NCBI RefSeq assembly: GCF_002894645.1
Contig: NZ_NCQY01000011.1
Span: forward strand, 1 to 64,000
Source of the DNA: Salinibacter altiplanensis
GTDB taxonomy: Bacteria > Bacteroidota > Rhodothermia > Rhodothermales > Salinibacteraceae
DNA: 64,000 bases
Reading direction: 5' to 3'
A model generated the notes under the pieces. The model made no database searches, was not told the DNA's origin, and saw only the letters and a list, made by a program, of their open reading frames with translations. A program made the translations under genes and the position numbers. Shown piece by piece: positions 31,825-35,681 of the stretch. Position 1 is the first letter of the stretch, and every line of letters starts with the position of its first letter.

Positions 31825-33258
31825 TCACGACCGAAGGGATCGCAGCCAGTCCCAGAGGCGCCGACGAAGAGGCGGGGTTGCGCCCAGGTCAAGGACGACG
31901 TACAGAATCAGCCAGAGCCCTGCGCCGGACATCAGAAAGTTGGCGATCCACATGCCCAGCCACGGCGGAAAGAAGCCCCGCTCCGCCAGCTTTTCCCCCT
32001 GTACGAGGGTAACCCAGTAGAACATAAAGATGCCGAGTGCCACGGCCCCGATCGTGGCGAGGCCGCCTCGGCGCAGGGCAAGGCCCAGCGGTGCCCCCAC
32101 GATCATAAAAATGAGGCAGGCGAGCGCGATCGAGAACTTTTTGTAGAACTCGACCTGGTAGCTCCGAATGCGCTGGGTTTGCCACTTCGTGTCTCGCTGG
32201 ATGTTTTGGATGGTGGACTGGGCCGACCGGGCGTTCTGGACCGCGGGCGAGACCACCGAGCGGCGCGCACCGTCGTCGAGGTCGGCAAGGGCGAGATAGG
32301 GGGACGAATGCGTTGGGGCAACGGGGGCCGGAGCCGACGTGTCCGTGGCGGCCGAGTCGGGGGGCCACGGGGACAGCTGGTCTTGGGTCTGCTCGTACAG
32401 GGACTGGTACTTCTCGTCTCGCAGTGCCTTGAGGGAATCGAGTGTTGCGAGCAGCTGTGGGGTGCGCATGGTGCGGGTGGAGCGGGAGGTCTCCCCCGAC
32501 GTGGAGCGCCGAAAGACGGCGTTCGAGAGCGTGAACTGGATGCGGTGACGGTCGAAGGTAAGTCGCTCGTACCGCTCCGACCGGTTGCTCGCATCCGCCG
32601 GCAAGGGGCGGTGCATCTCTCCGTTCCGCAGGGTGAGAGTAAGGCGGGCGCCCCCGTCATTTGAGGTGATGACCCCCCGTTCAGCCTTGATGACCGCCTG
32701 ACGGTCCCGCCCCTGAGTGTAGTCGTAAATGGTGACGTCAATCAAGTCGTTGGTTCCGGACGGACGGTCCCGAACCAGAATGCTGTAGTCCTCCAGGTCC
32801 TCGTAAAAGATGCCCGATCGGAGCTCAAAGCCGGGGCGCTTTCCCCGAATGTCGCTCCAGAGCTGGCGGGCCCGGTGGTTGGCCTCCGGCAGCATGACGT
32901 TGTTGAAATAGAGCATTCCGCCCATGAGAAGAAGGGCCACCACGAGCGTCGGCCACACGATCTGCCCGAAGGAGATCCCGGTGCTCTTAATGACGGTGTA
33001 GTACTGCGATTCGGCCAGCTCGCCAAATGCCATGAGGGCGGCCAGCAGCACCGACATCGGCACTGCCAGCACCACCATGTACGCCAAGTTGTAGGCAATC
33101 AGTTCGATAATGACCGGGACGGGGATGCCCTTGCCCGCAATCTCGGGCAGCCATCGAATCAAGAACTGCATCAGCAGCAGAAACATGAGCGTGCCGAGCC
33201 ATCCGAAGAAGGGACCCGGCAGCCGACGCAGTACGATCCAGTGGAGGCGGCGCAGCAT
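31825..33258 (-). CDS. LptF/LptG family permease of LPS export
   Basis: 477 aa from the ATG at 33258. Three N-terminal transmembrane helices (about 15-120) and three near the C-terminus flank a periplasmic beta domain, the typical YjgP/YjgQ architecture. Family blocks: LLMQFLIRWLPEIAGKG, ELIAYNLAYMVVLAVPMSVLLAALMAFGELAES, FNNVMLPEANHRARQL and the late GAPLGLALRRGG. It forms the transmembrane part of the LptB2FG transporter that moves LPS to the outer membrane. Whether it is F or G cannot be told. A Pro/Ala/Ser-rich insert (about 335-370) in the periplasmic region is unusual. Divergent from the MBL gene at 33438. Confidence 0.9.
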   Translation of the reverse strand: MLRRLHWIVLRRLPGPFFGWLGTLMFLLLMQFLIRWLPEIAGKGIPVPVIIELIAYNLAYMVVLAVPMSVLLAALMAFGELAESQYYTVIKSTGISFGQIVWPTLVVALLLMGGMLYFNNVMLPEANHRARQLWSDIRGKRPGFELRSGIFYEDLEDYSILVRDRPSGTNDLIDVTIYDYTQGRDRQAVIKAERGVITSNDGGARLTLTLRNGEMHRPLPADASNRSERYERLTFDRHRIQFTLSNAVFRRSTSGETSRSTRTMRTPQLLATLDSLKALRDEKYQSLYEQTQDQLSPWPPDSAATDTSAPAPVAPTHSSPYLALADLDDGARRSVVSPAVQNARSAQSTIQNIQRDTKWQTQRIRSYQVEFYKKFSIALACLIFMIVGAPLGLALRRGGLATIGAVALGIFMFYWVTLVQGEKLAERGFFPPWLGMWIANFLMSGAGLWLILYVVLDLGATPPLRRRLWDWLRSLRS

Positions 33259-33437
33259 GTAGAGGTGTCGTCGTGGGGAAGCCCCAAATAACAGGATGCA
33301 CAAACGCCCGGTGCAAATCGCATGTTCGGGGACGGGGGCGCGGCGTCGGCGTGAGCCCACCGCCGTTGGATCTTCCGAGGGCCGTGGGAATTGAGAACAC
33401 CTGCTCAATGTACCCCCAATGCTCTCTCACACTCCGG

Positions 33438-34088
33438 ATGCAGGTCGAGCCGTTTACGTGTAGCTCCTTCATGACGAACTCTTATCTCTGCCACGACCAG
33501 GGGGAGGCCGTGCTCGTCGACGCGAGTTGCGAGACCGAGGCTGAATGTGAGCAGGTGATGCAGGTCATCGAGGAGCATGATCTCGACGTACGCCACCTGC
33601 TGCTGACCCACGCACACATCGACCACATCTTCGGGTGCACGTTCTTCGAGGAAGAAGTCGGCCAGCGATTTCAGGCCCACGAAGCCGCGGTGCCGTTCAT
33701 CGAGCGGGCGGAGGAGCAGGCCACGGCGTTTGGGGTGGAGGTGGAGCCGCCGTCCGTGCCCACGACCCACCTCGCGGAAGGAGACACCGTCTCGTTCGGC
33801 GACGTGACCCTCGACGTGCTGCACACGCCGGGCCATTCGCCCGACTCCATCTCGTTCGTTCACCGCCCGAGCCGACAGGCCCTCACGGGAGATGTCCTGT
33901 TCCAGAACTCGATTGGTCGCACGCAGGGCCTTCCGGAAACGTCCCGCCCGCAGCTTTTGCACTCGGTTACCGAGAAGCTCCTTCCCCTCGGCGACGACGT
34001 TACGATCTACCCCGGCCACGGCCCCTCGACGACCATCGGTCAGGAGCGCACGCAGAATCCGTTCGTGCAGGAGGCCCTCCGGGCGTAG
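33438..34088 (+). CDS. MBL-fold hydrolase, glyoxalase II-like
   Basis: 216 aa from the ATG at 33438. The metallo-beta-lactamase fold shows NSYL, VDAS, the metal motif THAHIDH (about 54-60), later TPGHSPDS (His about 135), LTGDVLF (Asp) and a final YPGHGPST. The order and length match the hydroxyacylglutathione hydrolase-like YcbL group, which hydrolyse thioesters. In this lineage low-molecular-weight thiols are probably bacillithiol-based, and bshA is the next gene but convergent, so a bacillithiol thioester substrate is possible but not shown. An in-frame ATG at 33408 would add ten residues. Confidence 0.87.
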   Translation: MQVEPFTCSSFMTNSYLCHDQGEAVLVDASCETEAECEQVMQVIEEHDLDVRHLLLTHAHIDHIFGCTFFEEEVGQRFQAHEAAVPFIERAEEQATAFGVEVEPPSVPTTHLAEGDTVSFGDVTLDVLHTPGHSPDSISFVHRPSRQALTGDVLFQNSIGRTQGLPETSRPQLLHSVTEKLLPLGDDVTIYPGHGPSTTIGQERTQNPFVQEALRA

Positions 34089-34138
34089 TCGATGCGGGCC
34101 GAGTAAACCCGCAGAGATACATGCATTCGAGCATTCTT

Positions 34139-34251
34139 CTGAGAACCTGTTTCAATTTCTGTCTCGGGGATCCGAGCGTCCTCGGAAGTTTCCCGATCTC
34201 TCCGGGAAGGTGCCCCTCTCATGAGGGAAAGTCAACATACCAGGTTCTGAG
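34139..34251. repeat. Cloverleaf-like palindromic element
   Basis: Outer arms CTGAGAACCTG (34139-34149) and CAGGTTCTGAG (34241-34251) are complementary at 10 of 11 positions and enclose three perfect hairpins: CTCGG/CCGAG (34163-34176), TTCCCG/CGGGAA (34190-34208) and CCCTC/GAGGG (34214-34227). A GGAA-starting unit also recurs with a 21-base period (34184, 34205, 34226). The layout suggests a folded RNA or a protein-binding DNA element; no known family is recognised. Confidence 0.5.
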
Positions 34252-34278
34252 GGACGGACGACCGGAGGAACGAACGAA

Positions 34279-34319
34279 CCCGAGAAACTGCAGGGGGATT
34301 TCCCAGAACTCCCCTCGGG
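34279..34319. repeat. Second hairpin of the palindromic region
   Basis: CCCGAG (34279-34284) and CTCGGG (34314-34319) pair, and GGGG (34293-34296) pairs with CCCC (34311-34314 region) inside. It resembles the neighbouring element in its GGGA/TCCC composition. Confidence 0.4.
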
Positions 34320-34532
34320 AGCCGGTGCGCACACTGACGTGAACCCACCCCGGCCTGCCGGTCCTTCTGCGGGCCTCTAAAACGACTCATTCCCGGGGCA
34401 CGCGGTACCGGGGGCTCAGCGCGGGTTTTCAGTGCCTCGACTCCGCGTCGCCCTCCCGGGCGTGCTCGGTTGCTCTCGCCCCCAGCGCTGCGCCCGGAAG
34501 GGTGCGTCCTCAAGATTCCCTTGTGTGTCTAC

Positions 34533-35681
34533 TCAGGCACTGGGAGACACCGTGCCGGCCCGGATGCGCTCGTAGTAGTCCTCGTACAGCGGCACGACGT
34601 GGTCGATGTCGAAGGTCTCGACCGCTCGCGTCCGGGCTGCCGCCGCCATCTCGTCGTGCAGCTCCTCATCGTCGAGAAGCGTCCGGGTGCATTTGGTGAA
34701 CTCGTCGATGTCGTCGAGTGGACAAAGGAAGCCGGTTTCTCCGTGCACGATCAGTTCCGGCAGCCCGCCGACCTCGCTGGCCACGACGGGCACCTCACAG
34801 GCCATTGCCTCCAGGGCGGCCAGGCCAAAGGTTTCCGAGCCGCTCGGCATGAGAAACACGTCGGCGATCGATAGAATCTCCTCGATCGGGTCCTGCTTGC
34901 CGAGGAAGCGCACGTCGTCGTAGACCCCGAGCTCCCGGGCCTTGCGCTCCGTGGGCACCCGCTCCGGGCCGTCGCCCACGAGCAGGAGCTTCACGTTCGA
35001 GGTCCCGTTCTGCAACCGGTGGAAAACCTCCACCACCTGATCGGTGTTTTTGACAGATCGGAAATTGGAGACGTGCACGATGACCTTTTCCCCATTGGGA
35101 CAGAGTGCCTGCTTAAAGTGCTCCTTGTCCTGGCGCACGAAGCGGTCGGTGTCAATAAAGTTGGGAACCACCTCAATGTCCTGAGACACCTCGAAGTGAT
35201 CGTAGGTCTCTTGGCGGAGGTAGTCGGATACGGCCGTCACCCCATCGGACGCGTTGATTGACCACGTGACGACGGGGGCGAACGAGGGATCCCGGCCGAT
35301 GAGCGTGATGTCTGTGCCGTGGAGGGTGGTGACGACAGGGAGGTCCAGGTCCTCTGAGTTGAGGATCTGCTGGGCCATCACGGCGCTCGACGCATGGGGC
35401 AGCGCGTAGTGCACGTGCAGGAGGTCCAGCCCCGCGTGCTTGGCGATGTCCACCATCTTGCTGGTGAGCGAGAGGGTGTATGGGGGGTAGTCAAAGAGCG
35501 GATAGCTCTGAACGTTGACCTCGTGGAAGAAGATGTTGCCGGCCACGTGAGAAAGCCGGAAGGGCAGATCTGAGGCGATAAAGTGAATCTCGTGGTCGCG
35601 TTTCGCGAGGGCCTTGCCGAGTTCGGTGGCTACGACCCCACTGCCGCCGTAGGTGGGGTAACAGGTAATGCCGACTTTCAT
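34533..35681 (-). CDS. bshA: N-acetyl-alpha-D-glucosaminyl L-malate synthase
   Basis: 382 aa from the ATG at 35681. GT4 glycosyltransferase for the first step of bacillithiol synthesis (UDP-GlcNAc plus L-malate). It opens with [30 protein letters not shown]-type sequence typical of BshA, has [12 protein letters not shown] (about 99-110), [12 protein letters not shown] (about 130-141), [11 protein letters not shown] (about 185-195), HVSNFR--K, and the GT4 donor site [23 protein letters not shown] (about 290-312). Length and N-terminus match the Bacillus enzyme closely. No bshB or bshC gene is in the window. A bacillithiol system is known or predicted in this lineage, so the assignment is consistent. 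Confidence 0.93.

What the first reader, a model, noticed from the sequence alone, without database searches (positions are those of the whole stretch)
34139..34319. Cloverleaf-like palindromic element between convergent genes
Outer 11-base arms (10 of 11 complementary) close three perfect hairpins, with a 21-base periodic GGAA unit, followed by a fourth hairpin. This is far beyond a terminator and does not resemble a riboswitch that I know. It could be a structured RNA, a mobile miniature element or a multi-site operator.
Basis: seen in the sequence. Interest (0 to 1): 0.5.

Follow-up and report, generated by a model that had tools for sequence, protein, structure and literature searches.

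The report
Decayed IS110 inside a miniature transposon
The cloverleaf-like DNA is most likely the leftover of two nested jumping elements, a miniature transposon into whose end an RNA-guided IS110 element had landed before most of both was lost, so it looks like a fossil rather than a new kind of RNA or control site.

Summary
The palindromes are real: 11-base arms (10/11 complementary), three hairpins, GGAA every 21 bases. But the locus is not a dedicated structured RNA. Bases 34139-34178 are the left end of a miniature inverted-repeat element ('MITE A', multi-copy in this genome). Bases 34171-34243 are the reverse complement of the first ~71 nt of the noncoding left end of an IS110-family element, plus its core. 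The pieces overlap in an 8-base repeat, TCCGAGCG. The arms are the MITE terminal repeat plus a TGA target duplication; their one mismatch is the middle base of that duplication.

A relative (L122) holds an intact IS110 at this very position of a MITE A-type copy: the predicted intermediate. The six intact copies read carry a predicted bridge RNA whose target guide resembles the MITE terminus; one copy in a different target has a changed right guide that fits it. The window piece lacks guide loops and transposase. It is absent from the 11 orthologous loci examined.

Verdict: a chimeric transposon fossil, new member of known kinds. Unexplained: the five IS110 left-end remnants found in this genome end within left-end nt 71-84.

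The parts
34139..34251 (.). whole chimeric element including its target-site context C-TGA-G on both sides
   Evidence: arms; homology of both halves
34140..34142 (.). left copy of the 3-bp target duplication, TGA
   Evidence: read from sequence; rule of equal 3-bp flanks
34143..34149 (+). left terminal repeat of MITE A, GAACCTG
34139..34178 (+). left end of MITE A, 38 of 40 identical to the copy L015 (C3:324632)
34171..34178 (+). TCCGAGCG, 8 bases shared by the MITE left arm and the IS110 left end: the joint
34171..34241 (-). first ~71 nt of the noncoding left end of an IS110-family element (three 5' hairpins); 74 of 81 positions identical to L122 when the core and flank up to 34251 are included
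34171..34186 (.). hairpin TCCGAG-CGTC-CTCGGA = third hairpin of the IS110 left end
34189..34209 (.). hairpin TTTCCCG-CGGGAAG region = second hairpin of the IS110 left end
34214..34227 (.). hairpin CCCTC-TCAT-GAGGG = first hairpin of the IS110 left end
34242..34243 (-). IS110 core dinucleotide CT (AG on the + strand)
   Evidence: comparison with intact copies
34244..34247 (+). outermost remnant of the MITE right terminal repeat, GTTC
34248..34250 (.). right copy of the target duplication, TGA
   Evidence: read from sequence

Best explanation
A chimeric fossil of two nested transposition events. (1) A MITE A copy (terminal repeat GAACCTGTTT..., probably moved in trans by an IS5-type transposase) inserted between the two convergent genes and duplicated TGA. 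(2) An IS110-family element inserted at the CT core inside the MITE's right terminal repeat (AGAAC-CT-GTTT), a site that its own predicted bridge RNA favours. (3) A deletion between TCCGAGCG in the MITE's left arm and the same 8 bases in the IS110 left end removed the guide loops, the transposase gene, the right end and most of the MITE. What remains is MITE left arm, three IS110 hairpins and the MITE's outermost right end; it most likely has no function now. Shown: the identity of both halves, the target duplication, an intact example of step 2 in a relative, and guide-target matching at the level of sequence. Inferred: the deletion and its mechanism, that it happened at this site, the IS5-type partner, and the lack of function.
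For: Left 40 bases match MITE A 38/40 and the rest matches the IS110 left end plus target flank 74/81, overlapping in TCCGAGCG. MITE A copies have equal 3-bp flanks in 14 of 23 rows, and the window has TGA on both sides. L122 is an intact IS110 in the right terminal repeat of a MITE A-type copy, with the same left joint as the window. L089 in the own genome is a second left-end remnant that runs into MITE interior, with another joint. The three hairpins are the first three helices of the consensus fold of six intact left ends. The intact element's gene has PF01548 and PF02371. Predicted target guides score best with their own targets: 2 of 720 re-pairings reach the true score. The element is absent from 11 of 11 orthologous loci examined.
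Against: No strain with an earlier stage at this very locus was seen; 444 bp separate the stop codons here against -20 to 106 bp in the 10 orthologues that could be read, so more than this element is new and a clean empty site cannot be shown. L071/L067 carry a similar joint at another locus, so the chimera may be older and have moved as a unit. The clustering of remnant ends at left-end nt 71-84 is not explained by random deletion. No intact IS110 of this group was found in the own genome. The right-guide column is only slightly better than another column (46 against 43 and 42 of 48 pairs).
Confidence: 0.82

Rival explanations
1. The chimera formed once elsewhere and then moved as a small mobile unit, using the MITE ends, into this site; TGA would be the duplication of that second move.
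For: Both outer ends GAACCTG/CAGGTTC and the TGA duplication are intact. L071 (G005) and L067 (G004), at another locus, also join the MITE left arm to the IS110 left end near CCGAGCG.
Against: The IS110 piece begins 6 bases (GTTC plus core AG) inside the right end, so the inner part of the terminal repeat is replaced. L071/L067 are only 75% identical to the window over 92 positions. No second copy with the window's joint was found in the own genome.
Confidence: 0.12
2. The three-hairpin left-end block is kept by selection, for example as a transcript-end or RNA-stabilising structure at gene ends.
For: All 5 left-end remnants found in the own genome end within nt 71-84, about 1 in 10,000 for uniform breakpoints in the noncoding left end. 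Pairs of the three hairpins are kept in 95.9% of 219 cells over 12 sequences.
Against: Covariation is weak: 2 pairs with changes on both sides, 43 of 500 shuffles as good; covariation score 90 of 500. No terminator-like site was found in 34050-34560. The element is absent from orthologous loci.
Confidence: 0.04
3. A structured RNA, riboswitch-like element or protein-binding operator proper to this intergenic region.
For: The isolated 113-nt piece folds better than most shuffles, z -2.32; the hairpins and the 21-base GGAA spacing are real.
Against: The two transposon families account for 34139-34251; no Rfam family at gathering score; no promoter-like site by the simple scan; absent from 11 of 11 orthologous loci examined; the genes are convergent.
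Confidence: 0.02

Closest known systems
IS110-family insertion sequences with bridge RNA / seekRNA (IS621: PMC11208160; ISEc21: PMC11187229; passages seen)
   Same: Intact relatives have PF01548 and PF02371, a long noncoding region upstream of the gene, a CT core, and loops matching target and donor. IS621 likewise prefers a repeat, the REP elements: 144 of 173 mapped insertion sites (PMC11208160 passage).
   Different: Target is the terminal repeat of MITEs. The left end has three hairpins before the target-binding loop, where the paper describes one 5' stem-loop. The window copy is only a ~71-nt remnant.
[quoted passage not shown] paper not held)
   Same: A DEDD-type element inserted inside the terminal repeat of another transposon.
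   Different: IS1111 group rather than IS110 type; host is a large transposon, here a MITE of another family.
MITEs mobilised by IS5-type insertion sequences (recalled as a class)
   Same: Short, noncoding, multi-copy, terminal repeats, 3-bp duplication (mostly TNA). In the genus an element with a DDE_Tnp_1 match has a 14/14 terminal match GAGCCTGTATTCAA and a TCA duplication (L210), another GAGGCTATTTGAAA and TAA (L215).
   Different: The exact autonomous partner was not found; the window copy has lost its interior and the inner right repeat.

Membership tests
MITE (miniature inverted-repeat element) | terminal inverted repeats | tested here: met
   GAACCTG / CAGGTTC in the window; longer in full copies
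MITE (miniature inverted-repeat element) | short target duplication | tested here: met
   TGA on both sides in the window; equal 3-bp flanks in 14 of 23 rows (one copy is listed twice, in both orientations)
MITE (miniature inverted-repeat element) | many noncoding copies in the genome | tested here: met
   a full copy as query gives 46 matching pieces in the own genome (some copies give two pieces)
MITE (miniature inverted-repeat element) | an autonomous element with the same ends | tested here: inconclusive
   31 loci with PF01609 matches checked: none with these ends; L210 and L215 have similar ones. Other transposase families were not checked
IS110 family | DEDD transposase with PF01548 and PF02371 | tested here: not met
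   met in the intact relative L065; absent from the window, which holds ~71 nt of left end only. The window is a remnant, not a working IS110
IS110 family | insertion at a core dinucleotide without duplicated target beyond it | tested here: met
   six intact copies read, CT at both ends; the window keeps the left joint
IS110 bridge RNA | target guides that match the insertion site | tested here: met
   in intact copies: 95 of 102 pairs, 2 of 720 re-pairings as good; weak for the left guide of L114 (5 + 1 wobble of 9) and the right guide of L129 (5 + 2 of 8). Not present in the window piece
IS110 bridge RNA | expression and activity as RNA | not testable with these tools
   no transcript data
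intrinsic terminator | G+C hairpin followed by a T run | tested here: not met
   0 found in 34050-34560, shuffles mean 0.4
known RNA family | match to an Rfam model | tested here: not met
   0 at gathering score in 33000-35000

The most novel reading that the evidence does not exclude
The first ~71-84 nt of this IS110 group's left end, three hairpins that end just before the target-binding loop, behave as a unit that outlives the element: either the recombinase or hairpin-directed deletion cuts there again and again, or the block is kept, or even moved, as a small structured element of its own.
Probability: 0.12. Interest if true: 0.55.

Novelty: new member of a known kind. Interest (0 to 1): 0.3.

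Why it matters
It turns a puzzling palindrome into a readable history. It points to an IS110 group in halophilic bacteria whose predicted bridge RNA favours the terminal repeats of local MITEs, with one copy (L114) in which target and right guide have changed together, which supports the predicted loop without an experiment. It also warns that cloverleaf-like intergenic sequences can be nested transposon remnants.

Tried and rejected
Known RNA: no Rfam family at gathering score. Terminator or promoter: none by the simple scans. TnpB/omega-RNA right end: considered because L062 borders tnpB-like reading frames (label recalled from the translations). Rejected when L065 and L062 showed an IS110 gene next to the repeat and L062 proved to be an IS110 inserted within those frames. 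MITE partner: the 5 own-genome PF01609 loci lack such ends; of the 31 loci from both searches L210 and L215 have similar, not identical ends. Two MITE-type ends 1318 bp apart in G007 as an autonomous element: judged by eye from the reading frames to hold no transposase; no family scan was run. A mini-IS110 with a right end near the remnants: of 16 loci checked only L003 has a weak right-end-like string. A right-end query found nothing in the own genome. Selection on the hairpins: covariation inconclusive. Literature: 'Salinibacter + MITE' 1 paper, 'IS110 + MITE + terminal inverted repeat' 12, 'Salinibacter ruber + insertion sequence + IS110' 1, 'IS110 + miniature + remnant + left end' 0. From titles and abstract openings none described this case; none of these papers was opened.

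Rows dropped: five left-end matches that run into contig ends (L095, L101, L106, L110, L096; ends at nt 91, 91, 74, 74, 60) were left out of the list of remnant ends. L194 is the same place as L111 and was counted once. The clustering trial used only the five own-genome ends. L111 (its terminus is missing), L101, L106, L110 and the intact L129 were not put into alignment A2.

Full report
WHAT IS THERE. The described palindromes exist. Arms 34139-34149 and 34241-34251 are 10/11 complementary. The isolated 113-nt piece folds into an outer stem with three good hairpins, z -2.32, 4 of 200 shuffles as good; the minus strand gives z -1.45, 18 of 200. With more flank the effect disappears, z -0.17, 81 of 200. 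GGAA starts at 34184, 34205, 34226 and also 34267. The element lies between a metallo-beta-lactamase-fold gene ending at 34088 (+) and a glycosyltransferase gene (BshA-like, name recalled) whose reading frame ends at 34533 (-).

TWO REPEAT FAMILIES. A search of the own genome with 34119-34339 gave 22 matches, the window included. They fall into two groups: the left ~40 bases, and the stretch from about base 34171 on. Reading 20 of the places with their flanks shows the left group to be a MITE with ends GAACCTGTTTCAATTT... and ...AAAATCAAAACAGGTTC. Of 23 rows with both ends, 14 have equal 3-bp flanks, mostly of the form TNA. The 23 rows include the window, six from G005 or G008, and one copy listed in both orientations. 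A full copy as query finds 46 matching pieces in the own genome. In the window the duplication is TGA at 34140-34142 and 34248-34250. As TGA is a direct repeat inside the symmetric context C...G, the outer arms look palindromic with exactly one mismatch, the middle base of the duplication.

THE HAIRPIN PART IS AN IS110 LEFT END. In relatives the second group continues into a transposase gene (334 aa in L065) with PF01548 and PF02371. Six intact copies of 1258-1281 bp were read: G005 (three), G002, G004 and G009. All six have CT at both ends, left end CTGGTATGTTGA... and right end ...CACAGCATCT. The contig lengths of the G002 and G009 copies (14854 and 38694) equal those of Salinivenus iranica CB7 and of the MAG Bacteroidetes bacterium QH_7_62_13 in the named collection, so the genus is the Salinivenus/Salinibacter group (inference). 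The window holds the reverse complement of the first ~71 nt of this left end, 74 of 81 positions identical to L122 when core and flank are included. Its three hairpins are the first three helices after the terminal pairing in the consensus fold of the six left ends.

THE INTERMEDIATE. L122 (G005:C1, about 256.8-258.1 kb) is an intact IS110 with left flank GTCTCAGAAC|CT and right flank CT|GTTTTGATTTTGGGTCGG. Its joined flanks give a MITE A-type element with both ends. The window has the same left joint. Its other joint lies in TCCGAGCG, present in the MITE left arm and in the IS110 left end. A deletion between these repeats in an L122-like arrangement yields the window sequence; the deletion itself is inferred. 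L089 (own genome, C29:259.9 kb) is a left-end remnant after which MITE interior like that of L122's host resumes at left-end nt 84 (comparison by eye). L011 (C15:125.2 kb) is a MITE A copy whose last bases read CATACCAG like the IS110 terminus. L108 (G005) has yet another joint. L071 and L067 (G005 and G004, same flank) have a joint near CCGAGCG at another locus, so either such a joint arose more than once or an older chimera existed.

WHY IS110 LANDED THERE. [quoted passage not shown] Scanning the six aligned left ends against their own targets, the best column for the left guide gives 49 of 54 pairs, the next 38. For the right guide the best gives 46 of 48 (38 Watson-Crick), the next ones 43 (23 Watson-Crick) and 42 (37 Watson-Crick), so the right guide is less clearly set apart. 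With these columns 2 of 720 re-pairings of guides and targets reach the true total of 95. Two copies are identical over the scored guides and target bases, so 2 is the minimum possible. The columns were chosen on the same data. L114 sits in a different right target (CT-TCTCTGG) and its right guide reads TAGAGAAG, 7 Watson-Crick pairs and 1 wobble of 8. Results that fit less well: the left guide of L114 (5 + 1 wobble of 9) and the right guide of L129 (5 + 2 of 8). Donor-like strings ACAGCATC and TTACCAG stand before the gene (by eye). The guides thus favour AGAAG-CT-GTTT-like sites, and the terminal repeats of local MITEs (AGAACCTGTTT, AGAAGCTGTTT) are such sites. The window piece ends before these guides.

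CONSERVATION. The element is absent from the 11 orthologous loci examined: blastn of the 113 bp gave nothing better than E 1.9. The twelfth relative, G009, gave no orthologue of the glycosyltransferase gene. The stop codons are 444 bp apart in the window and -20 to 106 bp in the 10 of 11 orthologues that could be read. So the rest of the 444 bp is also particular to this lineage, and a clean empty site cannot be shown. Part of it, 34323-34502, has a 69% relative at C29:552416-552581.

AGAINST AND OPEN. No intact IS110 of this group and no right-end remnant was found in the own genome. Two marginal, adjoining transposase matches (E about 7e-4) lie at C3:261.3-261.6 kb, away from the five remnants. 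The assembly has 30 contigs, so a repeat could be missing. The five left-end remnants found in the own genome end at nt 71 (window), 84, 71, 80 and 77. Uniform breakpoints over the noncoding left end give so narrow a range in 0.011% of 200,000 trials, over the whole element in none. Other remnants in the genus, not at contig ends, end at 79, 42, 40, 31 and 145. Hairpin covariation over 12 sequences (5 intact, 7 other) is weak: 2 pairs with changes on both sides, 43 of 500 shuffles as good. Selection on the block is therefore not shown and the clustering stays unexplained. The MITE's own transposase was not identified; L210 (ends GAGCCTGTATTCAA, TCA duplication, DDE_Tnp_1) makes an IS5-type partner likely.

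VERDICT. MITE and IS110 left end are each members of known kinds. The chimera is most likely a nested-transposition fossil with no sign of present function. The checking round changed the wording of several counts and added the marginal transposase matches and the weak margin of the right guide. It did not change the reading.

Noticed in passing
own genome C5:34171, C29:259876, C16:204281, C19:230961, C5:80055: The five IS110 left-end remnants found in this genome end at left-end nt 71-84, just past the third hairpin, with no right end or clear transposase remnant found.
   Followed up: partly
L106 and L110 (G009): Two left-end copies carry an extra hairpin insertion and both contigs break at the same base, left-end nt 74, hinting at further copies that differ after that point.
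   Followed up: no
window 34323-34502 and own genome C29:552416-552581: Intergenic stretch beside the element has a 69% identical relative elsewhere in the genome, with a conserved GCCCCCAGCGCTGCGC; identity unknown.
   Followed up: partly
G007:C8:47413-48730 (L190): MITE-type ends in opposite orientation 1318 bp apart enclose a 271-aa reading frame that does not look like a transposase: possibly a gene framed by two MITEs.
   Followed up: no
L062 / L129 (G005:C1:296.3-297.6 kb): An intact IS110 sits inside tnpB-like reading frames (label recalled), one mobile element's gene broken by another.
   Followed up: partly
own genome C5:80055-80278 (L194): A second MITE family (AGAACCTGTTTGGTGG...) lies directly at the end of an IS110 left-end remnant, in GAAAATCA, as if the MITE had inserted into the remnant.
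   Followed up: no
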